From NCBI GenBank assembly GCA_000442125.1, contig KE546968.1:399932-463931 (forward strand): a DNA stretch of 64,000 nucleotides. The letters run 5' to 3'. Origin of the DNA: Opeltia flavorubescens (Eukaryota > Ascomycota > Lecanoromycetes > Teloschistales > Teloschistaceae). The stretch's first letter is position 1, and each line of letters begins with the position of its first letter. Below the pieces are notes generated by a model. That model saw nothing but the letters and a program-made list of their open reading frames with translations, was not told where the DNA came from and ran no database searches. The translations under genes and the position numbers were made by a program. Positions 4,619 through 64,000 of the stretch are shown in pieces.

Positions 4619-4655
4619 GGGAGATAGTCCTCGAACCCCTACGAATTACTATTAA

Positions 4656-13955: not shown

Positions 13956-16900
13956 AGATAAAAAATTTAAAGGCTATTTTTTATAAAAATTTAATATTTA
14001 AGTTATAAAATTAATAAGTTAAAACCGCTATAATATAAGCTAGAATTATAACTATAAATAACTTTAATATATAATATTTATTTCTTATTTTATTTAAATC
14101 TATTTATATTTATTAAAAGACTTTTTTATTTTTAAATCTAATCGTAAAATATAATCGCCCTATTATTTATATTTAATTAATTATTTTAGTATATATTATT
14201 TATAGTATAAATAAATTTATTATTCTAAAAAAACTTATTAAAGATATTCTATTTATTTTTTTATTTATTTTTATAGATCTATATATCGACTTAAAAGCTA
14301 GTAAACTTTTTTTTTTTTATTTATAAAACTTAATATTATCGATATTCCTACTAGTATTTATAGATAATATTAGTAATTATTTTCCTACTAGTTAAAACGA
14401 TATAGCCGGGTATTATAAAATAACTAGTTATAAAACCGAGTAATTATTATTAAAGTTTAATATAAAAAAAATTATATCTAGATTTAATCTAGTCTTAATA
14501 AAAAATTATAATTTTAATAAATTTAAAGAATATAAAAAATATTAGTTTTTAAATATAGAACTATTTATCTACTAGATTAAAAGTCTATTTATTAGGGTTA
14601 AAAATAGTTTAGTATAATTTAAAAATAATTTTTCTAGTATAACTATAGCTTCGATTATCGAGTTTAACCTAAAACTATAATTCTATTATTTAATATTTTT
14701 AATTCTTTAATAAAAAAAAGCTAGTAATAGTTAAACTAAAAATATAATTTTATTAAAACCGATTTAATATATTCTACCTAACTATTCTACTAACTTAATA
14801 ATTTTTATATAAAGGCCGCTGGCTATAATTAATCTAAATATTCGGTAGGACTAAATTATAAAAAAAGGAATATAGTAAAAAAACTATTTTAAAAAATATT
14901 ATAAGCTTTTAAAGGTTTTTAAAAAAAACGTTTAATATAATAAAAATAATTTAATAAATATATTTAATATAAATTTACTATTTTTTAGGTAAAAATTATA
15001 ATCGCTCTTTATTATATTTATTTTAATACTAGCGCGCGAAGGTTAACGCGAGTATTTTAACCCTATTTTTCTTTAATCTAATTCCTTTAATTTTATATTT
15101 ACCTTTATTCCGGTAAAATATAATCTATTATAAAGTTTATACCGCTTTTATAGGATTTTTATTCTAATTAAATTACTTAATCCTATTAAATATATATTAA
15201 TAGCTAGCGGTACTATAAAATTAAAGAGGAAATTGGAAAGAAATATTTAAGGTTATAAACGCGGATAAAAACGAGAATAGGGCTATAAATAAAGGGCGAG
15301 AAAGAGTATATAATCGGCGAAAAAGAGTTAGAATAATAACGCTTATATAAAAGTCGCGACTAATAGTAATTAAATAGTATTATATAATAGTAAAGCCGAA
15401 TATAAAACCGATAATAGATTTATTATTAAAAGTATTACTTTTATATTATTTTTTCCTTTTTTTTCTATAATTATAACTATATAGTCTAATTATATAGTTA
15501 TTATACTTTTTTTTTTTTATATTATACGGGTCCGATAGATATATCTACTTTTATAGTTAGTTATTAGAAATTCAAGTATTAAATAAAATATATATAGGTT
15601 AGTAAATTTAATCTAGAATTTAAATTTTAATTATTTATCTTTTAATATTTAATAAATTATAGCGTAAAAGCTATTTTTATTTTTAATTAATAAATTTTTC
15701 TATTAAATTTTATTATTAATTAGGTTTTATATAAATTTCTTAAATTAAAATTATAAAATAGTAAAATTTAAATTATTTAATTTAATAAATTTATTATCTC
15801 GGGTAAACTTCGCTTTAGTTATTATATAGATAAAGAAAACTTTCGATTTGTTATTAAGTCGAAAATCTATTACTATTATACTAAGTAGTATATATTAGAT
15901 ATATTCTATTATTTTTAGGTTATCTATATAAATTTATAAGCTTAAGTTAATTATTATTATTATAATAGATAACTTTATATAGACCTTTCGCTTTTTTAAT
16001 TAATATTTAGTATTAGTATTAATTTTATATATTAATTAATAGAAAGTTTTATAATTTAAAATATTTACTATTATAAATTAATCGGCGCCTATATAGATTT
16101 CGTCGTAAATAATATATAGCTTAATTTTATTTTTATAACTAGCTAAAAATTATATTATAAATAGATCGGCTTTTTATATAATTTTTTTAACTTTATTATA
16201 AAGTAACGAATATTCGTTATTTTTTTTATAGCCGAGTTTTTACTTAAATTCTCTAATTTTCTATTAATTTCGGAAAGATAAAAGAATATCTAGGCTAAAG
16301 GTTATTTTTAAAGTAGGATCCATTATATAAAAGGCTAAAAATAGGAAAATATAAAAATTATATTAAGTTTTTAATCTTTAATAGCATCGAATTTATTTTA
16401 TATTAAAGCTAGTTTATTTTTATTATTATAAAAAAGATTAAATAAACTATTATATAAATAATTAAAATATAGAATCTAATTTAATATAAATTAATTTTAG
16501 TTAAAATTTCTACTTTATTCTAAATTAGATAATAAACCGTATCTAATTAGAATAAATAATAAGCTTATTTAAAGGCCTACTAGCCGTTTATAAAAAAATA
16601 ATAGTATTATTATTATTATATTTCTATTTATATTATATAGGAATAATAGAATTAAATACTAAATTAGATTTTTTAAATAGACGCGCTATATTTTAAATAG
16701 TATAATTAAATATTAATTTTATCTTTAATATTTAAGAAGCTCTATTATTAAATATTAATTCTTACCTTTTAATTAGTATAGACCTTTTATATCGAAAAAA
16801 AATTATTAATTTTTTTATTACTCGCGGCCTCTAATATTCCGTATAATATATAGATAATATTAATAAATTAATAGTAATACTATAAAAAAAAATAAAAGCT

Positions 16901-17667
16901 ATTCTAATTTAAAAATAGTAAACTATATTTTTAAAGTAACTTATCTAGTTATATATTATAAATTTTTTTATTACTAAAAACTTTTTATAATTAATTATAA
17001 CGTTTAAATTATATAAATCTCAGATTTTATTTTATATTCTAGTTATTCCTATATTTAATTTATCTAATCCGCTAATAAATTTTTAGATAAAATATAAAAT
17101 AGAACTAAATTAAATAATTTTTTTTTACTCGAAATTATACTATAAGAAAAAGGTAAAAGTATAAGGATATATATAAATAAAAAATAATAAATTAAAAGCT
17201 CGAGTATTAATAAACCAAAAATAATTTAATTTATATAATAAAATACCTTTTATTATTATATCTTATTTATAACCTTATAATTACTATATTTAATAAATAT
17301 TTATATCGATTTTTTTTTTTTATTAGAAGTTAAATAAATTAAATTTAATTTATATAATTAAATATTCTATTTAACTATATATTATAATATATTAGAAGTT
17401 TAAAAAAAATAATAATATTTATTTTTCGCCGCGAGTATTTAAATTATCTATATTTATTACTTACTATTTTTAATATTTTAGATTAAATATTATACTATTT
17501 AAGCCTTATTTAAATTTAATAAACTAAAGCTAATATTATTTAAATATAGGTAGCTATATAAATTATAAAAATAATAAATAAAAATTAATAATCGATTTAA
17601 TATATATTAAATACCTATATTAAATTATCGTTTATTAATTTATTTTAAGCTTTTAAATATTTTATAT

Positions 17668-18110
17668 CTTCTACTAGCCTATTAAATCTAGTATTAGTAT
17701 TATTTATCCTTATATATTTAATATATTACCCTATTAATTCTTTTTATCTTATATTATAGCTTACTACTTTTATAATCGGTTATTTTATCTACTCTTTATT
17801 TATATTTAAATTTTTTTTTCTAGTACTATTAATAATCGAAAATACTTTAATTAATTAGTAATTTTATTTTAAAAGGTTCCTTTAAATTTTAAATTTTTAT
17901 ATAAATTTTTTTATATTTCCCGCTAGCCTATTAAATTTAATATTAATATTAGTTAATTATCCTTTTTTATATATTTATTAAATTATCGAACTTTTTTATA
18001 TAACCCGCTAGCCTACTAAATCTAATATTAATATTATTAATTTATCCCTTCTTTATATATTTAATTAATCTTCGAATCTTTTTATATAACCTTTTAGCCT
18101 ATTAAATTTA
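17668..18110. repeat. Minisatellite-like array in left arm (units with CTAGCCTATTAAAT)
   Basis: The core CTAGCCTATTAAAT and variants starts at 17,674, 17,933 and 18,008, with a TTAGCCT variant at 18,094. It is followed each time by TA-rich text and TTTTTTATATA-type text. Spacings are 259, 75 and 86 bp. The mirrored array is at 61,079-61,510. Confidence 0.6.
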
Positions 18111-19618
18111 GTAGTATTATTTTATTTAATTCTTTTTTATATATTCAATACGCTTATTTTATTAACTCCTCTTATTTTATATTAAACTCTACTTCTTTTA
18201 TATTTAATAGTTAAATCTAATTCCTATCTATATTTAAAATTATTTTTTTATTTTATTTTCGAATATTAAATTACGGGGGTATTATATCTTATAAGTTTAT
18301 TAACTAACTAGTAAATTTATCTAGCTATTTTATATCGCTCTATTTTTTTATTAGTATAATTTTAAACTTTTTAACTATAAATTATTAAAGAATATCTTTT
18401 AGGTAAATAGTAAAACTTTTTCTATTATTACTTTTATTATTAAATATACGATAGTTTTTAAATATATTCTATTTTATTTAAAATATTATAAATACCGAAG
18501 TTTTTAATTTATTATAAATTCTTTTTTTAATTTATTTAATCTTTTAATAGGACCTAATTTCCTTTAATATTAGTATTTATTTATTATTATTATTATTTCT
18601 ATTACTTTAGCTTCTTTATATTTAAATACTCGCTAATTTAATTATATTAAGTTTTAGATTATTTATATTTCTTTCTAAATTTTTATTATTATAGAAGCTA
18701 TAATTTTAAAGTATTTTATATATATATTATAGCCTTTTTAAGTACTTACTAATTTTTTAATAGTAGCTCTCTTTTAATTTTACTAGTATACCGCGGAGGT
18801 AAATAAATAACCCTAGCTAGGTAATAAAGGCCCTTTTTAGTATATAATTCGCGGGTATATAAAAAACCGTCCGTATTTTAAACTATAAACTAGACTACGA
18901 TAGCGATTTTAATAAATTTAAGCCTATTAATATTTAAAGCGGTAATTTTAATAAATTTTAATTTATTAATATTCGAAATAGTATTCTTAATAGTATAAAG
19001 TCTATTTTAGCCTAGTATTATATATCTATTATAAAGTATAAAGATATAATTATTCTAATATTCGGTTAATTTAAATTATTTAAAATTAAAAAAAATATAT
19101 ATATCCGTCGGGCGAAATTTATAATTTTTTTAATTAATCGCGTATAAATAAATAAAATTTATTTAAAAATCTTACTTTATAATTTAATTAAAAACGGTAA
19201 AAAAATATACAATAATATTTTTTATATTTAAATTTTTATTTTCGATTTTACCGCCTTTTTAAAAGCTATATATTTTTATTAATATAATAAATAACTTTTA
19301 AATAGTAATAAAACTACTATTATAGAGGTATTCTTTAAAAAATAGACTTTAAAAAAGAAGATATAAAGGGTTAAGACGATTTATATAAATAGAAAATTCT
19401 AATTTATTTAATTCCGCTTCGATTCTAATAAAGTTTATATATAAAGTATTTATATTAATAATCTACCTACCTTTATATTTAATTATAGACTTTATTATAA
19501 AATATATATAAAATTTAAATAAATATTCGAGCCTATAAAAGTTTATTTTATTATTAAAGAATTAATCGACTATTAAAGTATTAAATCTAAACTAGCTATA
19601 ATAAATATATTTTTAGTA

Positions 19619-22320
19619 GTCGAATAGCCAGACGTTTTTATATATTTATTATATAAATTTAAAAACTACTTTATATAAAATTATAACTATTTATTTTACT
19701 AATTATATTTTAATCTTATACTACCTTTTAAATATCGACCCGATTATAGCTAGTATTTATATAAACCGGACTAATAATTTTATTTTATAGTAAAACTCTA
19801 TTATAAAATTTTTAAAAACTTTATTAAATAGAATTTAATCTATATTTTAGAGATTTTATAAAATTATAAAAAAGAATAAACCGAGATTAAATAGTTCTAA
19901 AAGCTTTAATATAATTTATAGATACTATTATTTATATAAAATAGCGATAAACTATATATCGGTCTCTTATATCTTTATTAAGATTTTATTTATTATATAA
20001 AACCTAGCGACTATATTACTATTAAATATAAAAATAAAGAATAGCCCGTAATAATATTTAAATAGTTTTTTTAATAATTTTTTTTATTAAATATTACTAT
20101 AATTATTAAACGACTATATAAAACTAAAAAAGGCTTTATAATTAAAAACTTCGTTTATAAATTCGATTTTTATTAAAAGTAATTTAATAATAATAAAAAA
20201 GCGATTATTAACTACTATAATTTCAGCCTATTTAATATTATATATATTAATATTAAATCCTTTAATATTAATAAAAACTACTATTTAATAGTTTTAAAAA
20301 AGCAGAACCCGGAATATATAGGTAAAAGATAATTCGTACTTTTTAACCGATTTATAAAGTTCTATCTTAACTAGGACCTATAACTAGAATATAAAATAAA
20401 TATTTTTCGTATTTTAAAGATAAATAAAATTATAAATCTTTTAAAATAATAATATATTAATTTAAATATAAAGTAATTTTAAATTATTAAATATTTAATT
20501 AAATACTTTAACGGCTTTAAAATTATTTAAAACGTTTTTAAAAATAAAAAATTATATATAAATAAAATAATTTACCTACTATTTATTAGTTAAAATTATA
20601 AAATTTAAATTATTAATCTTTTAAATAAAATAATAAATTATTTTCTAAAATAATTAAAGGCTATATTATAGAAATTAATAGAATTTAATATTAAATATTT
20701 TTAAAATAAAAAGGTTATATATTTAAATATATTAATTATAAAATATCGCGCGGTCTAAAATAATATTAAAAGATATATTAATAATAAAATTAATCTTATA
20801 AATTAGCGCTAGAATAAATTATATAATCTTATTATAAAATTCGATTTAATAATATATCTACTAATAAAAAAATAAAAAATAATTAAAGCGTTTAAAATTA
20901 ATAATAAATATTTTAAAAATTTTAAAAATAGCTTTTATATATATATTTTTAAAAAGGCCGGTTTACTAAATTAAAAATTATTTAAAAACTATTTTTTAAA
21001 ATTTTAAAACTCTATTAATATATTTATTATAGAATTTAATAAATATTTAATAATTCCTCCTATAATTTTAACTATAGGAACCTTTATAGAAAATCTACTC
21101 GAGAAATTAAATATAACTTCTACCTTACCGGAAAGTAGTTACTTTTTAGGTATTTAAACCCAGTCTAAAAATAAAAATAAAAATAACTATATTAATAATA
21201 ATAATATCGATAATAATAATAATTTAAAAGATTTCTCGGGCTATAATAATTATAAAAAAGATATATCTTAATTTAATCTATTAAAGAAACTAATATATAA
21301 GTAAAAATAAACGCGCTATAAAATTTTCTATATAATCGAGGGCTATAAATAATAATCTAATATATATTAATATATAAATATCTAATTCGCTATTTTATTC
21401 TATTATTAAAAAGATTCGAAAACTCTATTTAATTATTAAAATATATAGCTATTTAACGAATTCTATTATAAATTTAAAAAAAAGGCATTTCGATATAATA
21501 TAGATATATTAATTTATATAATTCTAACTAAAGGGCGAATAATAATTATATACTTTTTTATTAATTATATAACTATATAAGAAACGGGTAGTATAAACTA
21601 TAGAAAATATTTAATAACCCTCGCGTAATATAACCGGTTTAATAAAAAACTTATAATTTTATTTTTAAATAATAATATTTATTAAATTAAATATAAATCT
21701 AATAAAAGCGGTAATTTCGTAGAATTTATAAAATAAAATTTTTTTAATCGCTAGATATTTTTAAATCAAAAATATATAACTTTAAATATATAAAACCGTA
21801 TTATATTAGACCTTTTAAATATACTTAATATATTTTATAATAATAACCTACTATTTAATATAAATTTTTTAATACGTCCGAATATCGCTATTATAATAAT
21901 TATAATTTATAAATTTATTAAAAAAATCGTTAATAAATCTTTTATTTTTATAAACTATATTAATATTAAAAATTAAAAAATAGGCTCGACTTATTTTAAA
22001 TAAAATCCGGACGAGTTTATCGCCGCGATATACCTAGTAAAATACTTTATAAAGTATAGCTATAAAATAAAAAAAATTATAATTTTTTTATTTTATTATA
22101 AGTAATTTAATCTTTTATAATATTAAATTTAAGGCGATAATTAATTAGAATTTATTAATATAAATACTATAAATAGATATTTAAATATAAAAATAAGCTT
22201 CTTTATTATTATTATAGCTACTATCAAACGTTTCGAATTTATAAAAATTAATCGAATATTAATTATTTTAAATCGAGGAAAAGATAGTATCGCTTATATA
22301 TATAATTATATATTATATTA
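19619..22320 (+). pseudogene. RIP-killed UPF1/NFX1-like superfamily 1 helicase, left-arm copy
   Basis: One reading frame runs about 900 codons with no frameshift, broken only by TAA/TAG, as expected when CAA, CAG or TGG codons suffer RIP. Its 3' third shows SF1B helicase C-terminal motifs in the correct order. A motif II-like site is at about 21,578-21,592 (GAA ACG GGT AGT here, an EAG-type site when compared with the right arm). The L-x-x-Q-x-R-M region is at about 21,782-21,802. A QNPDEF...LVKYF block precedes an ITIL-x-x-Y-x-x-Q-like segment at 22,076-22,108. Then come an NT(V)-x-x-Y-like motif V at 22,163-22,190 and a LNRGKD motif VI at 22,268-22,285. Spacing matches UPF1/ZNFX1-type helicases. 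I did not find a convincing Walker A, so the N-terminal part is uncertain; an in-frame Asn/Asp-rich tract lies at about 21,160-21,225. The true start is probably upstream. It cannot be functional as it stands. Confidence 0.68.
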
Positions 22321-25300
22321 ATAATAAAAGCACTATAAATAAATAACTATATTAAATAGTTTAGTAGATCGCTTTAAAATAAAATTCGTATTTATTTAAA
22401 TAAGTTATTTATAATAACCTTATAAAATTAATAACCGTATTTTTAATCTTCTCGCTTATAAATAGACTATATTAATAGATAAATAAATAAAAAACAATAA
22501 AAATAAAAATAATAATAATAATAACGCGACGAGTAAAGATAAAAAAAAAGTAATACTATATAATAATCTCGCGGGTATATAAAGATAGAATAATTTAATA
22601 AATAAATAATTAAATAAATAAATTATATTAACTATAATTTCTTTTTTTATTAATAAAATTTATATACTAATTATTTTATTAACTAGATCGAGTATAGTTT
22701 ATAAATAAATAAAACGCTAATAATAAAAACAATAATAGCTAAAATATATTTTCTTTTTAATAATATAATTTATATATTAAATCCGCTTTAACCAATAATT
22801 AATATTCGTACTATAAATAACTTTAAATTTAATAGTTAAGTAACTAGTATTATTATTAATTAAATAACCGTTATAATATATAAAATAGATTAAACCACGT
22901 ATAAACCTTTAAAAGATAATATTATATTATAATACTTATATATTTTAAAACTACCTTTATTAATTATTAACTTTATAATTATAGATATTAATCCAACTAA
23001 TATATAATAATAAAATCAAACGATATTATAATATTAAAAAGTTATAATCCAGCTTAATAGCCTAATAAAATATTAATAATAGTATTTTATTATAGCCGGG
23101 GGTGTAATTAAACTAACCGGAGCATTTTTATCTAATATATAATCTATAAAAAATAAAATAATTAAATCGAGGACCGATAATATTATTAATATTATAGTAT
23201 TTAATAATAATAATTATTATATAACCTACTTAAATAAATTTATAAAAGGGGAAATTTATACCGAAATTATTAGATATTAATTTTTTACTAACTATTATTT
23301 TTAACCGGAAACGATTTTAAAATATTTATCTATTAATTTTTTTATTAAAGGCTTTAAAACTACCGTTTATTTATATAAATAATACTTATAAATTCTATTC
23401 TTTTATCTTTTTTATATATTATACTTTTTATTATTAACTATTAAATTTAAATTCGCTATAAAAGCAAATCGCTAGTATAACTACTAGTTACCTTCTTTTA
23501 TTATTTATATATTTATAGATTTAATTATTAGATTTTTATAAATATTTTTTTATAACCTCCGCTATTAAATTTATTATAATATCTATTTAAGAGCTATATT
23601 TATATTAATTAAATTATAAATTTTCGATTATTATTTTTTTATTTTACTACCGATAATATCGCTTTATTTATTTATTATAGATATTAGTTTTTTTTAAACT
23701 ATTAAATATATTATTAAATTCTTTATTTTATTAATTCTATTATATCTTATATTATTAACTTTAGAACTTTTATTTTAATAATATATTATACTTTATACTA
23801 CTATCGGATTTTAATAGTATAGCTGGCTAATTTCGGATTTATTTTAGCTTATTATTATTAGTAATATCGGGTTTAATAAGTATTTAATATCTATATACGT
23901 CTATTTATTAAATCGAAAGTAAATAAATAGTTTTATTACCTAATTAATTAATACTAATAACGTTAAATTAATAACTAATTTTTTATAATTTAATTTAACG
24001 ACTAGTAGCTATAATATATTTAGTATTTTAAATCTAATAATTAATATATAAACTATTTTCTTACTTTTAGTCTTTTAAATACGGTTTTATAAGCTAATTA
24101 TATTTTTTATAATAGAATTTTAATTAATTAAAAATTATAATACGCGTAATTAAAAGCGTTACTACTTATATTAGCGATTAAAAAAAATATATATATTAAT
24201 ACGAAATAATACGTTTCTATTTTTTTAATTTTAATATTAAAAAATATTTTTTTAATAAATTTTTAATAGTACTTTAAAAGCGAATAAAGTATAATAATAA
24301 ATAAAAATTTCTATTTTTTATTTCTAATAATAGCGAATCTATAAAATTAATAGATAAATATAATTTTAATATATTTATTATTAATAGATACTACGTAGTT
24401 AATAATATAATTTTATATTTTTAAATATATCTATAATTATAAATTCTAGATTAGTATATAATAACTATTTAATTAATTATCTAATTAATTTTTATTAATA
24501 TTTATAAATTCTAACCCTCGTTTTATTAAACCGGCCGATTTTAATAATAAAAAACTATATTAAATAATAAAAAATACCTTTTATTAAAATTATAATCGTT
24601 TTATAAACTTAAAATAATTTTTTAAAAAAAATTAAAAAAAATTTTTATATATAAAATTTAATAGAATTAAATTAGTATAAAATAAATATTAAATATAATT
24701 TTAAATAATTAACGACTATTAAATATTTTAAATTTATTATTTATATTATATATATATAATATTAAATATCTATTATATATATTAATAGCCGAATAGATAT
24801 TATAATAATATTCCTTTTTATTTAATATAATTATTACGTATTTTATTTTATATAAAAAATAGTTACTATAAATTATATAATTCGGATCTTTCTATTTAAA
24901 TTATATTATAGGCGCCCGCGCTATATATTTTATAGTTTTTTTTTTTTTTATTACTATTAATATCGTTTTTTAAATAATTCTCTATATTTAAATATTTTTT
25001 AATTATTCTCGCGTTCTATAATCTTTATATACTATTTTAAACTTTTTAATAGTATTTTTTCTAATTTTATTACCTTTTTAATATTTTAACGGCCTATTTA
25101 TATATTAAAAGAATCGCGGAAGCGTTAATAATAAATTAATATTAATATTTTAAATATTATATTCTAGTATATAATAAAAATTCTAATAATTATTAATTAA
25201 TTTATAAGGTATATAATTTTTAATACTATTTAAAACTATTAGCGGGAAAATTAAAAAAATAGTAAATTAAATTATTATCCTTTTAAATAATTAAATTAAT

Positions 25301-28300
25301 TAGTTTTTTAATAAAAATAAACTTATTTAATATTTATTTAGGTTCTAGATTAATAAAAAAATACTAATATTACGGCTAGGTTTTTAAAGTAGATTTTAAT
25401 TCCGAGTATAACTAATAAATACCTAATAATAAATTAAAAGATACTATTCGTATTATTATTTAATTAGCTAATATTAGAATAAAAATCGATTTTAACGTTA
25501 TTTATAAGTATTTAAATAGTAAAATAATAATAAAAGCTCCTATTTTTAATATAATTAGTAAGTAAAAAAATAATAATTATTTTATAATAGGAAAATAATT
25601 TTTTTTAGATTTTTTAAATTATTTTATTTAAAAATATTTATTTAAAAACTTTATAAGCTTCGAGCGTTTATATTTTTTACCTAATTCTAAAAATTAATTA
25701 ACTGTTAATAGAGGTATTAATATAATATATAATATTTATTAATCTATTTATATAATAGAAGTATAGAATTTTTATTTTAATAATTAGTATTAAATCGGGT
25801 TATTTTTAATATAAAATTAAAAGTAAGTGTTTAATTATTAATATTAATATTTTAAATATTATAAAATTTTATTTTCTATTAATTTATTATATTAAAATCG
25901 TTTTTTTATTTATATATTTATTATAAAGCTGGAGTTTTATAATTTAGATTATTTATCTTTTAATTATAATAATAAAACTTTATTTCTATTATCTATAAAT
26001 CCACTTCTTTAATAAAGGTAATTCTAGTATATTTTAATATATAGAAAGTTTTCTATTAATTATTAATTAATTTATAGACTATATAGATTTTAAGATTATA
26101 TAAATATATTAATATAATTAAAATTCTAAAAAATTAATCTAAAAATTTAATAAAATAAAAAAATTAAAAGTAAATTATTTTATAATAAAGTATAAGGGCC
26201 GTTTTAAAAAAGATAATAAATTAAAACTATCTTTAACTTAAGTACTAGATAGGCTAATATATACTAGGCTAGAAAAAATATCGCGTTATTAGTATTATAT
26301 TATAGATATTATAAAAATTTATATTTAAAAAATATAATCGGAAAAAATAGTAATTTAAATTTTTTATTTTTATTTTTGACTATTATTATAGAAGCTATAA
26401 TATTTATTTTAATTTCTTTTATATATTATTTATTATAACCGGTTAAGTTATTAAAAAGAATATAGAAGATAAAAAAATTAAAAATTTTGAAATTTTTTTT
26501 ATAGAACTTTATATTATATATAAAAGCTAATATTATTTTTATAAATTTAATAAATATTAAATAGATTTTAAAAATTAGATATTACTAGATTTATATTTTT
26601 ATTAATATTTTACTAAATTATTATAATAATCGAGTTTATAGTAAAAAAATTAAAAAATTATTTATAAAATATTAATAACGGATTAAATATATTTAATTAA
26701 AATAAGAATTTTTATTTAAAGTAGTATAGATTTAAAAAAAATTATAATTAAATTTAAATTAATACTTGCTTTTTATTATTTTTAAAACTTTAATTTACTA
26801 AATCGATTATTAAACTAGAGATTAAGGGCTTATAGAATTTATAAAATAAGAAATTTCTATTATTAAATATAGTACCGTTAATTTTATAAAATATAACTAT
26901 TATTAAAACGAACTAATATTAAAAGTAGATTAATTTTTTTTAAATATAAATATTCGTTAAAGCTTTTATTTAAATTTATAGAATTTATAACGGCGATATT
27001 ATAAATAAAACCCTTTTAATCTATTCTAGCTATATTAATACTATTAAAATAGTAGAATTATTATTTTATACTATTAATAATAAATATAATTATTATCTAT
27101 AGATATTCCTTTTTATTTTTTTTAATAAAAATATCGATATCTATTTTTATATTAAAAAACTTTATAATTACTAATAAAAAGTTTAATTATAATATTATTT
27201 TAGATTAATAAGGAATAAAAATAGCGCTATAGTATATTTCGAATATTTTTATAAAATTTAATATTAAGCTTAAAGAAACTATTTAATATAATATTATTAA
27301 AGGATTTAAAGACTATTTTACTCGTTTTATTTTAATTATTAATATTAATATTTCTTATATTAACCTTATAGTATACGCGCCCTTATATACTACTATAATT
27401 ATACTATTAAATAGATAGACTCTTTTTATTTATAATTTTTTATATATTTATTAAATTTAATATTAAAGCGTTTAAATACTATATAATAGAATTAAAAGTT
27501 TTTAAAATATTAAGCTTTATTTATCGAATATTATAATAATATTTTAATATACTAGTATATATTACTTTTATTACCCGCTAATTATTAGCGTTAGTTTATT
27601 TATTTAAATACTTATCTAAATTTTTTACTTTTCTAATCGATTACTACTTATTATATATCTATAACTTAAATTGTTTAGCTATATATATCGTTTAAAATTA
27701 GCTTTTATAAATTTAATAAAGCTGTACTACTATTATTAAAAGCGAATAATAACTTTTAGAAAATTTATTTAAATAATTTCTATTTAACCCGGTTTTTTAT
27801 TTTAAGAAAATGAGTTTATTATTTATATACCCTAAATTCTTTATATTTATAATTATTTAATAGAAAAAAGGGTATATAATACTTTAACTACTTATATTAA
27901 CGGTATTTAGTATATTATTATTAACTTTTCTTTTTATTTTACTATTTATCCTTAATTTATTATATTTTAATTACTATTATATTCTAAAATTAAACGCTAT
28001 AAAAGCTTTTTAAATATTTATAACTATATTAATAAATATTTATTTTATTTTTTCTACTAATTTTTTAACCGCTAACCTTATAGATAAAATAATTATTTCG
28101 TTTCTTTTAAAACCTGCTATATTATACTATATAATATAGTATTTCTACTCTATCGAATAAACGGATCGAATTAATAAAAACCGGTGTAATTTAATAATAC
28201 GTATATTTATATAATTTATAATATTAAGTTATTTACCGTTTTAAATATTAATTATATTAAAAATATATTAAATATTATATATATTATTTCTAGAGCCGAA

Positions 28301-47574: not shown

Positions 47575-47934
47575 GCGGGCTAAACTAGGATTTACTAGCT
47601 ATTATTCTATTTATTATATTTTAATTATTATTATTAATAGCTTTTTAAGCTTTAAATATTAGGCTAGTTTTTAGTTTTAATTTTTTACGTTTTTTATTTA
47701 TTAGATAATATAGGGAGTATCTCTAGTTTTATTTATTTTAATACCTAATACTAAGCGATTCTAGTTAGGATATACTAGCTATTATTTTATTTACTATATT
47801 CTAATTATTATTATTATTAACTACTTCTACTTCGAATTTTAGATTATTTTTTAATTTAAATTTTTTATATTATTTATTTATTAAATAAAATAGAAAATAT
47901 CCCTAGTTTTATTTACTTTAAAACCTACTACTAA
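47575..47934. repeat. 180-bp tandem duplication (right arm)
   Basis: This is the mirror image of 31,011-31,370, placed by the coordinate sum 78,945 and visible directly as two copies of a CTAGTTTTATTTA-ending unit. It adds no length difference between the arms. Confidence 0.7.
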
Positions 47935-51951: not shown

Positions 51952-52350
51952 GCCGTTATAAATTTTATAAATTTAAATAAAGGCTTTAACGAATATTTAT
52001 ATTTAAAAAAAATCAATTTACTTTTAATATTAATTCGCTTTAATAATAATTATATCCTATAATATTAATAGCGCTATATTCGATAATAAAAATTTTTTAT
52101 TTTATAAATTCTATAAGTTCCGCTGCTATAAGCCCTATAAATTTAAATAAAAACTTTAGCGAATATTTATATCTATAAACCCCGTTACTATAAGTTCTAT
52201 AGATTTAAATAAAGGCTTTAATAAATATTTATATTTAAAAAAGGTTAATTTATTTTTAATATTAATTCGCTTTAATAATAATTATATTTTATAAAATTAA
52301 CGGCGTTATATTTAGTAATAAGAATTTCTTATTTTATAAATTTTATAAGT
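51952..52350. repeat. Right-arm-specific 232-bp tandem duplication with an inner 62-bp partial copy
   Basis: The block ATTTAAATAAAGGCTTTAA starts at 51,971 and again at 52,203, exactly 232 bp apart. A third, shorter occurrence (AAACTTTAGCGAAT variant) begins at 52,141. The left arm has only one copy, at about 26,820-27,000. The inverted-repeat coordinate sum changes from 78,946 to 79,178 across this block, which equals the repeat period. Confidence 0.8.
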
Positions 52351-55300
52351 TTTTAGTTCCTAGTTTAATAATTAATCCGGTAAATTAAAGCTTTAAAAAT
52401 AATAAAAAATAAATATTAATTTAAATTTAATTATAGTTTTTTTTAAATCTATACTATTTTAAATAAAAATTTTTATTTTAATTAAATATATTTAATTTAT
52501 TATTAATACTTTATAAATAATCTTTTAGTTTTTTTACCGCGAACTCGATTATTATAATAGTTTAATAAAATATTAATAAAAATATAAATCTAGTAATATC
52601 CGGTTTTTAAAATTTATTTAATATTTATTAAATTTATAAAAATAATATTAGCTTTTATATATAATATAAAGTTTTATAAAAAAAATTTTAGAACTTTTAA
52701 CTTTTTTACCTCCCGCGCTTTTTTTAATAACTCGGCCGGTCGTAATAAATAGTATATAAAAGAAATTAAAATAAATATTATAGCTTTTATAATAATAGTC
52801 GAAAATAAAAATAAAAAATTTAAATTATTATTTCTTTTAATTATATCTTTTAAATATAAATTTTTATAATATTTATAGTATAATATTAATAATACGATAT
52901 TCCTTTTAATCTAGTATATATTAATTTATCTAATATTTAAATTAAAAATAGTTTTAATTTATTATTTTTTTTAAAATAGCCTTTATACTTTATTATAAAA
53001 TAATTTATTTTTAATTTTTTTATTTTATTAAATTTTTAAATTAGCTTTTTAAAATTTTAATTATATTAATATATTTATATAATATTAAAGTCTATATAAC
53101 CTATAAATTAATTAATAATTAATAAAAAACTTCTTATATATTAAAATATACTAGGATTATCTTTATTAAAAAGGTAAATTTATAGATAATAAAAATAAAG
53201 TTTTATTATTATAATCGAAAAATAAATAATCTAGATTATAGAACTCTAATTCTATAGTAGATATATAAATAAAAAAACGATTTTAATATAGCGAATCGAT
53301 AGAAAATAGAATTTTATAATATTTAAAATATTAATATTAATAATTAAATATTTACCCTTAATTTTATATTAAAAATAATCCGGTTTAATACTAATTATTA
53401 AAACGAAAGTTTTATATTTTTACTATATAAATAAATTAATAAATACCGTGTACTATATTAATACCTCTACTAATAATTAACTAATCTTTAAAGTTGGGTA
53501 AAAAATATAAATATTTAAAGTTTACGAGGTTTTTAAATAAATATTTTTAAATAAAATAATTTAAAAAATCTAAAAAAAATTATTTTTCTATTATAAAATA
53601 ATTATTATTCTTTTATTTATTAATTATATTAAAAATAAAAGCTTTTATTATTATTTTACTATTTAAATACTTATAAATAATATTAAAATCGATTTTTACT
53701 TTAATACTAACTAGTTAAATAATAATACGAATAGTATTTTTTAATTTATTATTAGATATTTATCGACTATATTTAGAATTAAAATCTACTTTAAAAATTT
53801 AGCCGTAATATTAGTATCTTTTTATTAATTTAGAGCCCGAATAAATATTAAACGAGCTTATTTTTATTAAAAAACTAGTTAATTTAATTATTTAAAAGGA
53901 TAATAATTTAATTTATTATCCTCCTAATTTTTCTATTAATAGTTCTAAATAGTATTAAAAACTATATACTCTATAAATTAATTAATAATTATTAGGGTTT
54001 TTATTATATATTAGAATATAGTATTTAAAATATTAATATTAATTTATTATTAGCGTTTCCGTAATTCTTTTAATATATAAATAAGCTATTAAAATATTAA
54101 AAAAATAATAAGATTAAAAAAAATATTATTAAAAAATTTAAAATAGTATATAAAAATTATAGAACGCGAGAATAATTAAAAAATATTTAAATATAGGGAA
54201 TTATTTAAAAAATAATATTAACGGTAATAAAAAAAAAAGAAACTATAAAATATATAGTATAAACGCTTATAATATAATTTAAATAAAAAAATTCGAATTA
54301 TATAATTTATAGTAACTATCTTTTATATAAAGTAAAATATATAATAATTATATTAAATAAAAAGAAATATTATTATAATATTTATTCGGTTATTAATATA
54401 TATAATAAATATTTAATATTATATATATATAATATAAATAGTAAATTTAAAATATTTAATAATTATTAATTACTTAAAATTATATTTAATATTTATTTTA
54501 TATTAATCTAATTTTATTAAATTTTATATATAAAAATTTCCTTTAATTTTTTTTAAAAGATTATTTTAAATTTATAAAACGATTATAATTCTAATAAAAG
54601 GTATTTTTTATTATTTAATATAATTTTTTATTATTAGAATTAATTAGTTTAATAAAATAAGGATTAAAATTTATAAATATTAGTAAAAATTAATTAGATA
54701 ATTAATTAAATAGCTATTATATATTAATTTAAAACCTACGGTTATAAATATATTTAAAAATATAAAACTATATTATTAATTACGCGGTACCTATTAATAA
54801 TAAATATATTAAAATTATATTTATCTATTAACTTTATAAATTCGCTATTATTAGAAATAAAAAATAAAAATTTTTATTTATTATTATATTTTATTCGCTT
54901 TTAAAATACTATTAGAAATTTATTAAAAGAGTACTTCTTAATATTAAAATTAAAAAAATAGAAATATATTATTTTATATTAATATATATATTTTTTTTAG
55001 TTATTAATATAAATAGTAGCGCTTTTAATTACGCGTATTATAATTTTTAATTAATTAGGATTCTATTATAAAAAATATAATTAATTTATAAAGTTATATT
55101 TAAAAGATTAAAAGTAAAGAAATAATTTATATATCGATTATTAGATTTAAAATACTAGATATATCGCAGCTACTAATCGTTAAATTAAATTATAAAAAGT
55201 TAGTTACTAGTTTAATATTACTAGTACTAATTAATTAAATAATAAAACTATTTATTTATCTTTAATTTAATAAATAGATATATATAAATATTAAATACTT

Positions 55301-56857
55301 ACTAAACCCGATATTACTAGTAATAATAGGCTAAAGTAAATCCGAAGTTAGCTAGTTATATTATTAAAATCTAATAATAGTATAAAATACGATATATTAT
55401 TAAAATAAAAGTTCTAAAGCTAATAATATAAAGTATAATAGAATCGGTAAAATAAAGAATTTAATAATATATTTAATAGTTTAAAAAAAATTAATATTTA
55501 TAATAAATAGGTAAAATAATATTACTAGTAGTAAAATAAAAAAATAATAATCGAAAATTTATAGTTTAATTAATATAAATATAATTTTTAAATAAATATT
55601 ATAATAAATTCAATATCGGAGGTTATAAGGAAGCGTTTATAAAAATCTAATAGTTAAATCTATAAATATACGAGTAATAAAAGAAGGTAATTAGTAATTA
55701 TATTAGCGATTTACTTTTATAGTAAATCTAAACTCGGCGATTAATAGTAAAAAACGTAATATATAGAAAGAGTAGAAAAATAGGACTTATAAATATTATT
55801 TATATAAATAGACGGTAGTTTTAAAGCCTTTAATAGAAAAATTAATAAATAAATATTTTAAAATCGTTTCTAGTTAAAAATAATAGTTAATAAAAAGTTA
55901 ATATCTAATAATTTTAATATAAATTTCCTCTTTTATAAATTTACTTAAATAGGTTATATAATAATTATTATTATCGAATACTATAATATTAATAATACTA
56001 TTAGTTTTTAATTTAACTATTTTATTTTTTATAGACCGTATATTAAATAAAAATACTCCGGTTAATTTAATTATACCCCCGGCTATAATAAAATACTATT
56101 ACTAATATCCTACTAAACTATTAAACTAGATTATAACTCTTTAATATTATAATATCGTTCGATCTTATTATTATATACTAATTAAATTAATATCTATAAT
56201 TATAAGGTTAATAATTAATAAAGATAACTTTAAAATATATAAATATTATAGCGTAATATTACCTTTTAAAGGTTTATATATAGTTTAATCCGTTTTATAT
56301 ATTATAGCGGCTATTTAATCGATAATAATACCAGTTATTTAACTATTAAATTTAAAATTACCTATAATACGAATATTAATTATCGGTTAAAACGGATTTA
56401 ATATATAAATTATACTATTAAAAAAAAAGCGTATTTTAACCGTTATTACCTCTATTATTAGCGCCCTATTTATCTATAAGCTATACTCGGTCTAGTTAAT
56501 AAAGTAATTAGTATATAAATTTTATCAGTAGAAAAAAAAATTATAGTTAATATAATTTATTTATCTAACCATCTATTTATTAGATTATTCTACCTTTATA
56601 TACCCGTAAAATTATTATATAGTACTATCTTTCCTTTATTTTTACTTATCGTATTATTATTATTATTATCTTTATTCCCGTCGTTTTTTACCTATTTATT
56701 TATTAATATAGTCTATTTACGAGCGAGAAGATTAAAAATACGGTTATTAACTTTATAAAGTTATTATAAATAGTTTATTTAAATAAATACGGATTTTATT
56801 TTAAAGTAATCTATTAAATTATTTAATATAATTATTTATTTATAATATTTTTATTAT

Positions 56858-59559
56858 TAATATAATATATAATTATATATATAAGCGATATTATCTCTTC
56901 CTCGATTTAAAGCGGTTAATATCTAATTAACCTTTATAAATCTAAAATATTCGGTAGTAGCTATAATAATAATAAAAAAGTTTATTTCTATATCTAGGTA
57001 TTTATTTACGGTATTTATATTAATAAATTCTAATTAATTATTATTTTAAATCCAACGCTATAAAAGATTAAATTACCTATAATAAAATAAAAAAATTATA
57101 ATCTCTTCTACTTTATAGCTATACTTTATAAAATATTTTACTAGATATACTATAGTAGTAAACTCGTTCGGATTTTATTTAGAATAAATCGGGCCTATTT
57201 TTTAATTTTTAATATCGGTATAATTTATAAAAATAAAAGACTTATTAACGATTCCTTCGGTAAATTTATAAATTATAACCATTATAATAGTAATATTCGG
57301 ACGTATTAAAAAATCTATATTAAATAATAAATCGTCGTTATAAAATATATTAAATATATTTAAAAGATCTAATATAATATAGTTCTATATATTTAAAATT
57401 ATATATTCTTAATTTAAAAATATCTAATAATTAAAAAAATTTCGTTTTATAAATTCTATAAAATTACCGCTTTTATTAAATTTATATTTAATTTAACGGA
57501 TATCGCTATTTAAAAATAAAATTATAAGCTTTTTATTAGGCCGGTTATATTACGCGAGAGCTATTAAATATTCTCTATAATTTATACTACCCGCTTTTTA
57601 TATAGCTATATAGTCGGTAGAAAAATATATAATTATTATTCGCCCTTTAATAAAGACTATATAAATTAATATATTTATATTATACTAAAATACTTTCTTT
57701 TTAAACTTATAATAAAGTTCGTTAAATAGCTATATATTTTAATAATTAAGCGGAATCTTCGAATCCTTTTAATAACGGAATAAAATAATAAATTAAGCGT
57801 TTATATATTAATATATATTAAATTATTATTTATAGCTTTCGATTATATAAAAAATTTTATAATACGTTTATTTTTATTTATATATTAGTTTTTTTAATAA
57901 ATTAAATCGAGATATATCTTCTTTATAATTATTATAACCCGAGAAATTTCCTAAATTATTATTATTATTAATATTATCGTTATTAATACAATCGTTCCTA
58001 TTTTTATTTTCGGACTAGATCTAAGTATTTAAAAAATAACCACCTTTTAATAGGGTAGAAATTATACCTAATTTCTCGAGTAGATTTTCTACGAAAATTC
58101 CTATAGTTAAAATTATAAAAGAAATTATTAAATATTTATTAAATTCTATAATAAATATATTAATAAAATTTTAAAATTTTAAAGGATAGCTTTTAAATAG
58201 CTTTTAATTTAATAAACCGGCCCTTTTAAAAATATATATATAAAAACTATCTTTAAAATTTTTAAAATATTTATTATTAATTTTAAATACTTTAATTATT
58301 TTTTATTTTTTTACTAGTAAATATACTATTAAATCGAATTTTATAGTAGAATTATATAATTTATTCTAGCGCTAGCTTATAAAATTAACTTTATTATTAA
58401 TATATCTTCTAATATCGTTTTAAATTATATAGTATTCTATAATTAATATATTTAAATATATAATCTTTTTATTTTAAAAATATTTAATATTAAATTCTAT
58501 TAATCTTTATAATATAGCCTTTAACTATTTTAAAAAATAATTTACTATTTTATTTAAAAAATTAATAATTTAGATTTTATAATTTTAACTAATAAATAAT
58601 AAATAAATTACTTTATTTATATATAACTTCCTACTTTCGAAAACGCCCTAAATAATTTTAAAATCGTTAGAATATTTAATTAGATATTTAATAATTTAAA
58701 ATTACTTTATATTTAAATTAATATATTATTATTTTAAAAAACTTATAATTTTATTTATTTTTAAAATATAAAAAATATTTACTTTATATTATAATTATAG
58801 ATTTTAGCTAAAATAAAGCTTTATAAATTAGCTAAAAAGTATAAACTACCTTTTATCTATATATTCCAGGTTCTACTTTTTTAAAACTACTAGATAATAA
58901 TTTTTATTAATATTAAAGACTTTAATATTAATATATATAATATTAAATAGATTAAAATTATAATAATTAATAATCGCTTTTTTATTATCGCTAAACTACT
59001 TTTAATAAAAATCGAATTTATAAACGAAGTTTTTAATTATAAAGCTTTTTTTAACTTTATATAATTATTTAATAATTATAATAATATTTAATAAAAAGAA
59101 TTACTAGAAAAACTACTTAAATATTATTATAGGCTATTTTTCGTTTTTATATTTAATAATAATATAGTCGCTAGGTTTTATATAATAGATAAAATTTTAA
59201 TAAAAATATAAAAAATCGATATATAACTTATTACTACTTTATATAAATAATAGTATTTATAAATTATATTAGAACTTTCGGGACTATTTAATCTCGGTCT
59301 ATTCTTTTTTATAATTTTATAGGATTTTTAAAGTATAAACTAGACTTTATTTAATAAAATTTTTAAAAATCTTATAATAAAATTTTACTATAGGATAAAG
59401 TCGCTAGTCCGGCTTATATAAATACTAACTATAACCGGATTAATATTTAAAAGGTAGTATAAGATTAAAATATAATTAATAAAATAAATAGTTATAGTTT
59501 TATATAAAGCGGTTCTTAAATTTATATAATAAATATATAAAAACGTCTAGCTATTCGAC
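56858..59559 (-). pseudogene. RIP-killed UPF1/NFX1-like superfamily 1 helicase, right-arm copy
   Basis: This is the mirror of the left-arm pseudogene, and its sampled pairs keep one constant coordinate sum, so no net insertion or deletion separates the copies. It keeps several informative residues lost on the left: an AAA GCG GGT AGT site at motif II supporting E/K-A-G-S, a TEYFRF block before motif VI, and an intact LTALNRGRD at motif VI (near 56,890-56,920). Conversely it has TAT where the left copy retains Arg in the QxRM motif. Comparing the copies position by position supports the UPF1/NFX1-like assignment. Many TAA/TAG codons make it non-functional. Confidence 0.68.
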
Positions 59560-61078
59560 TATTAAGAATATATTTATTATAGCTAGCTTAGATTTAATAT
59601 TTTAATAGTCGATCGGTTTTTTAATAATAAAATAAGCTTTTATAAACTTAAATATCTATTTAAATTTTATATATATTTTATAATAAGGTCTATAATTAGG
59701 TACAGAGATAGATAGGTCGTTAATATAGATACCTTACGTATAAACCTTATTAAAATCGAAGCGGAATTAAATAAACTAGAATTTCCTATTTATATAAATC
59801 GTCTTAATCCTTTATATTCCTTTTTTTAAAATTTATTTTTTAAAGAATATTTCTATAATAGTAGTTTTATTACTATTTAGAAGTTATTTATTATATTAAT
59901 AAAAATATATAGTTTTTAAAAAGGCGGTAAAATCGAAAATAAAGATTTAAATATAAGGAATATTATTATATACTTTTTTACCGTTTTTAGTTAAATTATA
60001 AAGTAAAATTTTTAAACAAGCCTCGCTTATTTATACGCGATTAACTAAAGAAATTATAAATTTCGCCCGATAGATATATATATTTTTTTTAATTTTAAAT
60101 AATTTAAATTAACCGAATATCGGAATAATTATATTTTTATACTTTATAATAGGTATATAGTACTAGACTAAAATAGATTTTATACTATTAAAGATACTAT
60201 TCTAAATATTAATAAATTAAAGTTTATTAGAATTATCGCTTTAAATATTAATAGGTTTAAATTTATTAAAATCGCTATTATAATCTAGCTTATAGTTTAA
60301 AATACAAACGGTTTTTTATATACCCGCGAATTACGCACTAAAAAGGGCCTTTATTATCTAGCTAGGGTTATTTACTTACTTCCGCGGTATATTAATAAAA
60401 TTAAAAGGGAGTTATTATTAAAAGATTAGTAAATATTTAAAAAGGCTATAATATATATATAAAATACTTTAAAATTATAGCCTTTATAGTAATAAAAATC
60501 TAAAGAAAAGTATAAATAATTTAGAACTCGATATAATTAGATTAGTAAGTATTTAAATATAAAGAAGCTAAAATAATAGAAATAATAATAATAATAAATA
60601 GATACTAATATTAAAGGAAATCAGGTCCTATTAAAAAATTAGATAAATTAAAAGAAGAATTTATAGTAAGCTAAAAACTTTAATATTTATAATATTTTAA
60701 ATAAAATAGAGTATATTTAAAAACTATTATATATTTAATAATAAAAATAATAATAAAAAGAGTTTTACTACTCGCCTAAAAAGTATTCTTTAATAATTTA
60801 TAATTAAAAAATTTAAAATCGTATTAATAAAAAAATAAAGCGATATAAAATAACTAAATAAATTTACTAATTAATTAATAAATTTATAAAATATAATACC
60901 CCTATAATTTAACGTTCGAAAATAAGGTAAAAAGATAATTTTAGGTATAGATAGAAATTANATCTGATTATTAAATATAGAAGAAGTAGAGTTTAATATA
61001 AAATAAAAGGAGTTAATAAAATAAACGTATTAAATATATAAAAAAGGATTAAATAAAATAGTACTACTAAATTTAATA

Positions 61079-61510
61079 GGCTAGAAAATTATATAAAAAG
61101 GTTTAAAAATTAGTTAAATATATAAAGAAAGGATAAATTAATAATACTAATATTAGATTTAATAGGCTAGTAAGTTATATAAAAAAATTTAATAATTTAA
61201 TAAATATATAAAAAAAGATAATTAATTAATATTAATACTAAACTTAATAGGCTAGCGGGAGGTATAAAAAAATTTATATAAGAATTTAAAATTTAAAAGA
61301 ATCTTTTAAAATAAAGTTATTAACTAATTAGAATATTTTCGATCGTTAATAATATTAAAAAAAGAGATTTAGATATAAATAAGAAATAAATAAAATAATC
61401 GATTATAAAAATAATAAACTATAATATAAAGTAAAAAAAATTAATAGGGTAATATACTAAGTATATAGAGATAAATAATACTAATATTAGACTTAATAGA
61501 CTAGTAGGAG
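61079..61510. repeat. Minisatellite-like array in right arm (AATAGGCTAG units)
   Basis: The core GGCTAG starts at 61,079, 61,165 and 61,250, with a GACTAG variant at 61,499, giving spacings of 86, 85 and 249 bp. It mirrors 17,668-18,110, but one spacing differs (85 here, 75 on the left), a small independent length change. Confidence 0.6.
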
Positions 61511-64000
61511 ATATAAAATATTTAGAAGTTTAGAGTAAATCGATAAACGATAGTCTAATATAGATATTTAATATATATCGAGTCGATTATTAACTCTTAT
61601 TTACTATTCTTATTATTCGTATAGCTATTTATATTTAAATAATATTAGCTTTAGTTTATTAAATTTAAATAAAGCTTAAATAGTATAATATCTAATTTAA
61701 AATATTAAAAACGGTAAATAATAAATATAAATAATCTAAATATTTATAGTGAAAAATAAATATTATTATTTTTTTTAAACTTTTAATATATTATAATATA
61801 TAGTTAAATAGAATACTTAATTATATAAACTAAACTTAATTTATTTAATTTTTAATAAAAGAAAAGAATCGATATAAATATTTATTAAATATAATAATTA
61901 TAAAATTATAAATAGAATATAGTAATAAAGGGTATTTTATTATATAAACTAAGTTACTTTTAATCTATTAATATTTAAGCTTTTAATTTACTATTTTTTA
62001 TTTATATATATCTTTATATTTTTATCTCTTTTTTATAATATAATTTTAAGCGAAAAAAAATTACTTAATTTAATTCTACTTTATATTCCGTTTAAAAATT
62101 TATCGGCGGATTAAATAGATTAAATATAAAAATAACTAGAATATAAAATAAAATTCGAGATTTATATAATTTAAATATTATAATTAGTTATAAAAGGTTT
62201 TCGGCGATAGAAAAATTTATAATATACGACTAGATAAACTATTTTAAAGATATAATTTATTATTTTTAAATTAAAATAGCTCTTATTTTTTTTTATAATA
62301 TCGCTACTAACTTATTAATATTATTTATATATTATACGGAGTATTAAAAACCGCGAGTAATAGAAAAATTAATAATTTTCTTTTAATATAGGAGGTCTAT
62401 ATTAATTAAAAAACGAGAATTAGTATTTAATAATAGAGCTTCCCGAATATTAAAAATAAAGTTAATATTTAACTATACTATTTAAAATATAACGCGTTTA
62501 TTTAAAAAATCTAGTTTAATATTTAATTCTACTATTCCCGTATAATATAAATAAAAATATAATAATAATAATATTATTACTTTTTTATAAACGGCTAATA
62601 GGTCTTTAAACGAGTTTACTATTTATTTTAATTAAATATAGTTTATTATTTAATTTAAAATAGAGTAGAAATTTTAATTAAAATTAGTTCGTATTAAATT
62701 AAATTTCGTATTTTAATTATTTATATAATAGTTTATCTAGTTTTCTTTATAATAATAAAGATAAACTAGCTTTAATATAAAATAAATTCGATATTATTAA
62801 AGACTAAAAACCCGATATAATTTTTATATTCTCCTACCTCTAGCCCTTTATATAATAGATTCTATTCTAAAAATAATTTTTAGCCTAGATATTCCTTTAT
62901 TTTCTTAAAATTAATAGAAAATTAGAAAATTTAAGTAAAAACTCGGTTATAAAAGAGATAACAAATATTCGTTATTTTATAATAAAATTAAAAAAGTTAT
63001 ATAAAAAGCTAATCTATTTATAATACGGTTTTTAATTAATTATAGAAATAAGATTAAATTATATACTATCCACGACGAAATCTATACAGGCGTTAATTAA
63101 TTTATAATAGTAAATATTTTAAATTATAGAGCTTTCTACTAGTTAGTATATAGAATTAATACTAATATTAAACGTTAATTAAAAAAGCGAAAAATCTATA
63201 TAAAATTATTTATTATAGTAATAACGGCTAATTTAAGCTTATAAATCTATATAGATAATCTAGAAATAATAAAATATATTTAATATATATTATTTAATAT
63301 AATAGTAATAGGCTTTTAATTTAATAATAAATTAAAAATTTTCTTTATTTATATAATAGTTAAAGCGAAATTTATTTAGAATAATAAATTTATTAAATTA
63401 AGTAATTTAAGCTTTACCGCTTTATAATTTTAATTTAAGGAATTTATATAAAACCCGATTAATAATAAAATCTAATAGAAAAATTTACTAGTTAAAAATA
63501 AAAATAGCTTTTATATTATAATTTATTAAATATTAAAAGATAAACGATTAAAATTTAAATTCTAGATTAAGCCTATTAACTTATATATATTCTATCTAAT
63601 ATTTAAATTTCTAATAGCTAATTATAAAAGTAGATATACCTATCGAATCTATATAATATAAGAGGAGGAAGGTATAGTAATTATATAACTAGGTTATATA
63701 GTTATAATTATAGAAGAAAAAAGGAAAAGCGATATAAAAATAATATTTCTAATAATAAATCTACCGTTAGCTTTATATTCAGTTCTATTATTATATAATA
63801 TTATCTAATTACCGTTAATTATAACTTTTATATAAGTATCGTTATTCTAGTTCTTTTTCGCCGATTATATATTTTTTTTTATTTTTTGTTTATAGCCTCG
63901 TTTTTATTTTTATCTATATTTATAGCTCTAAATACTCCCTTTTAACTTTTTTTTCGATTTTATAGTACCGCTAGCTATTAATATATACTCGATAAGATTA

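What the first reader, a model, noticed from the sequence alone, without database searches (positions are those of the whole stretch)
15178..64000. Giant inverted duplication: arms of at least 23 kb around a 2-kb centre
Reverse-complement matching holds at every point tested, from the loop edges (38,481/40,464) to the end of the window (15,178/64,000), with a nearly constant coordinate sum. Palindromes of this size are rarely recoverable in fungal heterochromatin and would be missed by ORF- or TE-based annotation because the DNA is RIP-saturated. Possible origins are a fold-back or breakage-fusion type rearrangement, or two huge elements inserted head to head.
Basis: seen in the sequence. Interest (0 to 1): 0.92.

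Follow-up and report, generated by a model that had tools for sequence, protein, structure and literature searches.

The report
Two giant transposons inserted tail-to-tail
The huge mirror-image repeat is real, but it is two separately inserted copies of a roughly 34,000-base jumping gene (of the Plavaka kind) that face each other and were then heavily mutated, rather than a chromosome that folded back and duplicated.

Summary
Confirmed, and larger than reported. The arms are 33.7 kb (L, window 4791-38479) and 33.9 kb (R, 40466-74385; the last 10.4 kb lie past the window end, read from the same contig). Ignoring C/T and A/G changes, the ungapped outer block is 99.95% identical; 800 shifted registers average 50.3%. 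Identity falls to chance exactly at both ends.

The arms are two insertions of one dispersed repeat (at least 12 loci by its ends). It has ~27-bp inverted termini (5'-CATCC..GGATG-3' before mutation), TA target duplications and a Plavaka (PF18759) transposase remnant. Older repeats elsewhere run through both insertion points: two loci for L, three for R. This excludes a fold-back or breakage-fusion origin. RIP-type mutation hit the arms nearly independently.

The ~2-kb centre is the rest of one older repeat (weak MULE match) plus 46 bp of another. Two internal blocks occur as alternative versions in all four combinations among copies, so copies recombined before they were mutated.

The arrangement is ordinary transposon nesting. 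The element is less ordinary: a giant Plavaka-type transposon, recalling the 'Plavaka giant repeats' of Amoebidium. Its content beyond the transposase could not be read here.

The parts
4613..4790 (.). Outer piece of the older repeat into which L inserted; the rest of that repeat is the centre 38482-40419
   Evidence: Window 4613-4785 matches C21 and 4620-4778 matches C2, directly beside the places that match the centre
4789..4790 (.). L target duplication, outer copy (TA)
4791..38479 (+). Element copy L, 33,689 bp
   Evidence: Ends fixed by TIRs, by other copies and by empty sites
4791..4817 (+). L 5' terminal inverted repeat (~27 bp)
18700..22500 (.). Internal block 2: two versions among copies (3-5% transversions from C1/C13 copies); limits approximate
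29400..34800 (.). Internal block 4: two main versions among copies (11-19% transversions per 2 kb); limits approximate
35472..35834 (+). Plavaka transposase remnant in L, PF18759 profile positions 41-166 of 325, broken by stops
   Evidence: E 8.4e-14, 52 bits, cut-off 26.3;
38453..38479 (-). L 3' terminal inverted repeat
38480..38481 (.). L target duplication, inner copy (TA)
38482..40419 (.). Centre: remainder of the older repeat that L entered; weak MULE transposase match
   Evidence: Full-length or near full-length matches on C2 and C21 and others; PF10551 E 0.0046, 17.8 bits, below the cut-off of 27.6
40420..40465 (.). 46-bp end piece of the second older repeat, into which R inserted
   Evidence: Continues beyond R's far end; unbroken in C3 (two loci) and C13
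40464..40465 (.). R target duplication, inner copy (TA); the outer copy is at window-equivalent 74386-74387, outside the window
40466..64000 (-). Element copy R, 33,920 bp in all, continuing to window-equivalent 74385 on contig C4
43114..43470 (-). Plavaka transposase remnant in R, at the mirrored place
   Evidence: E 4.3e-7, 29.9 bits
51957..52188 (.). Extra ~232-bp tandem unit in R that L lacks; cause of the step in the coordinate sum; limits approximate

Best explanation
The mirror structure is two independent insertions of one ~33.7-kb DNA transposon of the Plavaka type (CACTA/EnSpm-related DDE transposases), in opposite orientation with their 3' ends facing, 1,982 bp apart (1,986 with the target-duplication bases). 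Shown: one dispersed family with fixed ends; terminal inverted repeats; TA target duplications; unoccupied versions of both target sites; a transposase remnant at mirrored places; C-to-T mutation of both copies, nearly independent. Inferred: the transposase bound the terminal repeats and joined the element to TA-like targets in repeat DNA; both copies came from one recent source (16 transversions apart in 33.7 kb), perhaps by a local hop; premeiotic repeat-induced point mutation (RIP) then destroyed both.
For: The ends recur at other loci: 5' end at 12, 3' end at 12 plus one diverged (lower bounds). Ten of ten copies with both ends read carry the inverted terminal repeat. TA flanks on both sides in 7 of 10, TT in 1. 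Unoccupied sites with a single dinucleotide: for L in C21 (TA) and C2 (CG); for R in C3:1238.7k (TA), C13 (TA) and C3:1278.2k (CA). Homology stops exactly at both ends. PF18759 in L, R, C1 and C13a and C1b, and no other Pfam family in the element frames scanned. Transition differences among five copies are near star-like, 12.5-13.2%.
Against: The target-duplication count alone is weak: because TA dominates, random re-pairing of the ten ends would match in about 5.8 of 10 against 8 seen, and two copies (C1b, C5) do not match. The genome-wide family search listed the transposase at only 2 places (L and C1b), missing copies that the direct scans found. Only 126 of 325 profile positions match, so the catalytic triad is not shown. 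L and R share slightly more mutated sites than other pairs (phi 0.232 against 0.185-0.206), so part of the mutation may predate their separation. Whether one copy hopped from the other is not shown.
Confidence: 0.93

Rival explanations
1. Fold-back, template-switch or breakage-fusion duplication: one segment was copied into an inverted position beside itself, so the arms are one event.
For: L and R are closer to each other (16 transversions in 33.7 kb) than to the three other aligned copies, and share slightly more mutated sites.
Against: Arms end exactly at the element's own termini on both sides, which recur elsewhere; unoccupied sites show L and R entered two different older repeats.
Confidence: 0.02
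2. Assembly artefact: a collapsed or chimeric join, or a fold-back read, produced the mirror.
For: Large palindromes are a known failure of assemblers (recalled); two single N bases lie inside the arms; reads were not available.
Against: The arms differ at 4,230 transition sites in both directions, one arm has an extra tandem unit, and each junction is explained base by base by an unoccupied site elsewhere.
Confidence: 0.03
3. The element is another kind of giant mobile DNA (a Starship, a Polinton or an integrated virus) and the Plavaka remnant is a passenger nested inside it.
For: Size, low copy number and modular variation would fit such elements (recalled). Most of the 34 kb is unread.
Against: The remnant sits at the same place in L, R, C1, C13a and C13b by alignment. 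Six-frame Pfam scans of L, C13a and C1 found no other family in the element, though mutation lowers sensitivity. No DUF3435 in the genome (but no control genome rang either). Terminal repeats with a 2-bp target duplication fit a DDE transposon of this clade.
Confidence: 0.06

Closest known systems
Plavaka DNA transposons of fungi, PlavakaB lineage (Kojima 2025, PMC12730594: abstract, section 3.2.2, figure legends, first parts of Results and Discussion, and passages seen)
   Same: PF18759 transposase; terminal inverted repeats beginning CAT; 2-bp target duplication (PlavakaB 2 or 3 bp)
   Different: Terminus CATCC..GGATG rather than CATCA..TGATG; ~34 kb (lengths of published families are in supplements not seen); RIP-destroyed; no TET/JBP domain found in the Pfam scans
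'Plavaka giant repeats' of the ichthyosporean Amoebidium (PMC11244446, passages seen)
   Same: Tens of kb long, associated with a Plavaka transposase, dispersed
   Different: Amoebidium units are tandem clusters of intron-poor genes, many coding for tyrosine recombinases, up to 50 kb; no such genes were detected here, and the host is not a fungus
Starship giant transposons of Pezizomycotina (abstract starts in listings; otherwise recalled)
   Same: Tens of kb; variable internal content
   Different: Starships use a tyrosine recombinase captain (DUF3435, recalled), not found here; this element has terminal inverted repeats, a TA target duplication and a DDE-type transposase remnant
Enlarged EnSpm/CACTA families of Chondrus crispus, 16-20 kb (PMC6431247, passage seen)
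   Same: Related transposase superfamily, enlarged size
   Different: About half the size, in a red alga, with 4-5 ORFs known

Membership tests
Plavaka (CMCT clade) | PF18759 transposase domain | tested here: met
   Above the curated cut-off of 26.3 bits in L (52) and R (29.9) and in C1b (49); matches in C13a (2.1e-7) and C1 (1.2e-6, two frames) reported without bits
Plavaka (CMCT clade) | Catalytic D, D, E with C(2)C and H(3-4)H motifs | tested here: inconclusive
   Only profile positions 41-166 of 325 match, and codons are damaged; the motifs were not located
CMCT clade | 5'-CA..TG-3' termini, 2-5 bp target duplication | tested here: met
   5' ends start CA in 3 of 10 and TA in 7 of 10; 3' ends read TA at 10 of 10 in reverse complement, read as RIP of CA; 2-bp duplication by empty sites
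PlavakaB | Termini CATCA..TGATG | tested here: not met
   CATCC..GGATG: fifth base differs
PlavakaA | Termini TGT..ACA | tested here: not met
Starship | DUF3435 tyrosine recombinase at one end | tested here: inconclusive
   No match in the genome, but none in the 14 control genomes either; no match in six-frame scans of L, C13a and C1
RIP (mutation process) | C-to-T transitions on both strands in repeats, CpA preferred | tested here: met
   4,230 of 4,246 substitutions between L and R are transitions. C counted over both arms and strands: CpA 166, CpC 1,495, CpG 2,694, CpT 5,349; 68% of CpA are T in the other arm against 36-45% in other contexts
Fold-back / breakage-fusion duplication | Breakpoints unrelated to transposon ends; flanks shared across the duplication | tested here: not met

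The most novel reading that the evidence does not exclude
A giant, modular, cargo-bearing transposon driven by a DDE (Plavaka) transposase in a RIP-active fungus: a counterpart of Starships with other machinery. Its internal blocks (18.7-22.5 and 29.4-34.8 kb) would be exchangeable cargo that recombined between lineages before RIP; all four combinations are seen.
Probability: 0.3. Interest if true: 0.7.

Novelty: new variant of a known kind. Interest (0 to 1): 0.45.

Why it matters
It shows how a spectacular palindrome in mutated fungal heterochromatin can be resolved: purine/pyrimidine identity plus unoccupied paralogous target sites give a base-exact insertion history even at 14% GC. It also points to a ~34-kb Plavaka-type element whose ends are found at 12 or more loci. 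Eleven library papers hold the word Plavaka (10 listed); in what I saw of them (listings, passages or sections of three), giant Plavaka units appear only for Amoebidium. If the internal blocks are cargo, giant transposons in such fungi would not be limited to tyrosine-recombinase Starships.

Tried and rejected
Coding frames from stops shared by five copies: only one frame over 150 codons, uninformative because mutation is saturated. Codon periodicity of transversions between block versions: none convincing (19 windows of block 4, lowest p 0.034 and 0.044; 8 windows of block 2, lowest p 0.56), so no sign of protein-level selection there. An apparent 3.2-kb shared flank beyond R's 5' end with copy C1: rejected, 70% purine/pyrimidine identity against 67% for an unrelated AT-rich control. 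An apparent extension of the 3' end into the centre in C1 and C7: rejected, those loci are not among the listed matches of the centre (its list is cut). A first check of the 5' boundary used a register off by two bases and was repeated in the exact register. Paper searches for inverted duplication with RIP, and for giant CACTA or DDE cargo elements in fungi, gave nothing closer in their listings. No structure prediction was made.
Full report
OBSERVATION. The window is C4:399932-463931 of a 34.4-Mb, 23-contig genome. Self-comparison gives two large reverse-complement blocks that together run from the loop edges 38481/40464 to the window end. Almost all mismatches are transitions: 1,531 of 1,538 in the outer block; over the whole element 4,230 transitions, 16 transversions and 2 positions with N. 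Reduced to purines and pyrimidines the ungapped outer block is 99.95% identical; 800 shifted registers give a mean of 50.3% (SD 0.5, maximum 52.2%). Reading on past the window end on the same contig, the match continues for another 10.4 kb to window-equivalent 74387, pairing with 4789. In the exact register identity in that code is 99.3-100% just inside and 45-51% just outside both ends. The 233-bp step in the coordinate sum is one extra ~232-bp tandem unit in R.

A DISPERSED REPEAT. A 3-kb piece of the arm finds further long matches on C1, C4, C5, C7, C13 and C15. Searches with the two ends find the 5' end at 12 loci and the 3' end at 12 loci plus one diverged locus, L and R included; the tool calls such counts lower bounds. 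Eight copies besides L and R have both ends, 34-96 kb apart. Distances above ~34 kb imply later inserts; I read whole interiors only of L, R and C1, and large parts of two C13 copies. Five copies (L, R, C1, C13a, C13b) were aligned.

TERMINI AND TARGETS. Ten 5' ends and ten 3' ends share an inverted repeat of about 27 bp, YATCCTGARWTTRTAAAACGAGCYCTA; further departures in single copies are mostly transitions, with a few others in C4b and C15. The first base is C in 3 of 10 5' ends and T in the other 7 and in 10 of 10 3' ends, as RIP would give. L is 4791-38479 (33,689 bp); R is 40466-74385 (33,920 bp). The flanking dinucleotide is TA on both sides in 7 of 10 copies, TT in 1 (C1), unmatched in 2 (C1b, C5) (hand count). 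Because TA dominates, random re-pairing of ends would match in about 5.8 of 10 (hand calculation), so this count alone is weak.

UNOCCUPIED SITES. They settle the origin. For R, the 46 bp between the centre repeat and R, and the sequence beyond R's far end, belong to one older repeat. Copies of it at C3 (two loci) and C13 run through the insertion point with a single dinucleotide: TA in two, CA in the third. For L, window 4613-4790 and the centre 38482-40419 are adjacent in C21 with a single TA, and adjacent in C2, where the dinucleotide reads CG. Differences at these junctions are mostly transitions. The CA and CG versions leave open whether TA was the original target or was made by RIP before or after insertion. 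Either way L and R entered two different older repeats at two separate sites, which a fold-back cannot produce.

TRANSPOSASE. Reading stops as X, all six frames of L, C13a and C1 were scanned against Pfam (cut-off E 0.01 for C13a, 0.1 for the others; about the first 0.3 kb of C1 and 0.4 kb of C13a were not in the scanned stretches). Within the element only Plavaka PF18759 matched: L 8.4e-14 at 35472-35834 (+); C13a 2.1e-7; C1 1.2e-6, in two frames. R, scanned only around the mirrored place, gives 4.3e-7 at 43114-43470 (-). C13b was not scanned. The genome-wide family search lists only two places, L and C1b, so it misses copies that the direct scans find. The centre gives a MULE match at E 0.0046, below its cut-off. 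No DUF3435 was found, though no control rang either. Mutation lowers sensitivity, so absence of other domains is weak evidence.

HISTORY OF MUTATION. Over 21,911 shared columns outside the variable blocks, any two of five copies differ by 12.5-13.2% transitions (L-R 12.5%), close to a star, so each copy mutated largely on its own. L and R share slightly more mutated sites (phi 0.232; other pairs 0.185-0.206) and have slightly lower GC (14.2, 14.4% against 15.1-15.4%). By transversions L and R are close: 16 in 33.7 kb. CpA is the scarcest C context and the most often lost.

MOSAIC BLOCKS. Compared with C1, C13a and C13b, most of L differs by few transversions (0-16 per 2 kb), but ~18.7-22.5 kb has 3-5% and ~29.4-34.8 kb about 11-19% per 2-kb bin. 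Genome searches type the blocks. Block 2 is L-like (85% or more) in L, R, C5:591211 and C7:1276913, and 78-80% in the other long matches. Block 4 is L-like (84% or more) in L, R, C7:1264144, C1:1541941 and C14:640334; 75% in C16; 68-73% in seven other loci, two of which also show weaker second pieces at 65-67%. So C5 is L-like in block 2 only, the C1:1530-1630k copy in block 4 only, C7 in both, and C1, C4b, C13 and C15 copies in neither: all four combinations, implying recombination between lineages. This assumes that the scattered pieces on C1, C5 and C7, which lie in order on one strand, are one copy each; I did not read those interiors. Block differences show no codon periodicity, so these blocks may be non-coding.

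COMPARISON. Kojima 2025 (PMC12730594, sections and passages) gives PlavakaB termini CATCA..TGATG with 2-3 bp target duplications and PlavakaA TGT..ACA with 2 bp. The element matches on transposase and duplication length and misses the PlavakaB terminus by its fifth base, so I call it Plavaka-type and file it in neither subgroup. 'Plavaka giant repeats' up to 50 kb are described in Amoebidium (PMC11244446, passages), with gene clusters not detected here. The size is the unusual feature; the inverted layout is not.

VERDICT. The palindrome is two insertions of a giant transposon that happen to face each other; the element deserves more attention than the mirror.

Noticed in passing
window 8175 and 60961: Single N bases inside the arms.
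   Followed up: no
window 4400-4618: A ~219-bp repeat beside L's outer flank, also at six other listed loci (84-93%), two of which lie within about 1 kb outside the two ends of copy C1b, in opposite orientation.
   Followed up: no
window 1872-2768 (+): Host gene for a short-chain dehydrogenase/reductase in two open pieces (PF00106 3.8e-21, PF13561 6.7e-32).
   Followed up: no
window 2847-4076 (-): Host gene resembling the box C/D snoRNP factor BCD1 (PF25790 7.4e-11 in one piece; the other piece's BCD1 and zf-HIT matches are just below cut-off), ending about 0.5 kb before the small repeat and L.
   Followed up: no
window-equivalent 74386-75385 (L010:386-1385), outside the window: The older repeat that R entered is itself a repeat family: 13 other listed loci at 82-89% identity; three forward frames of 5 kb gave no Pfam match.
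   Followed up: partly
window-equivalent 81013-81387 and 89964-90339, outside the window: A ~375-bp direct repeat pair about 9 kb apart (82% identity), possibly the long terminal repeats of a retrotransposon.
   Followed up: no
window 17908-18150, 31010-31361, 47586-47934, 61029-61298: Tandem arrays of ~86-bp and ~180-bp units at mirrored places in both arms.
   Followed up: no
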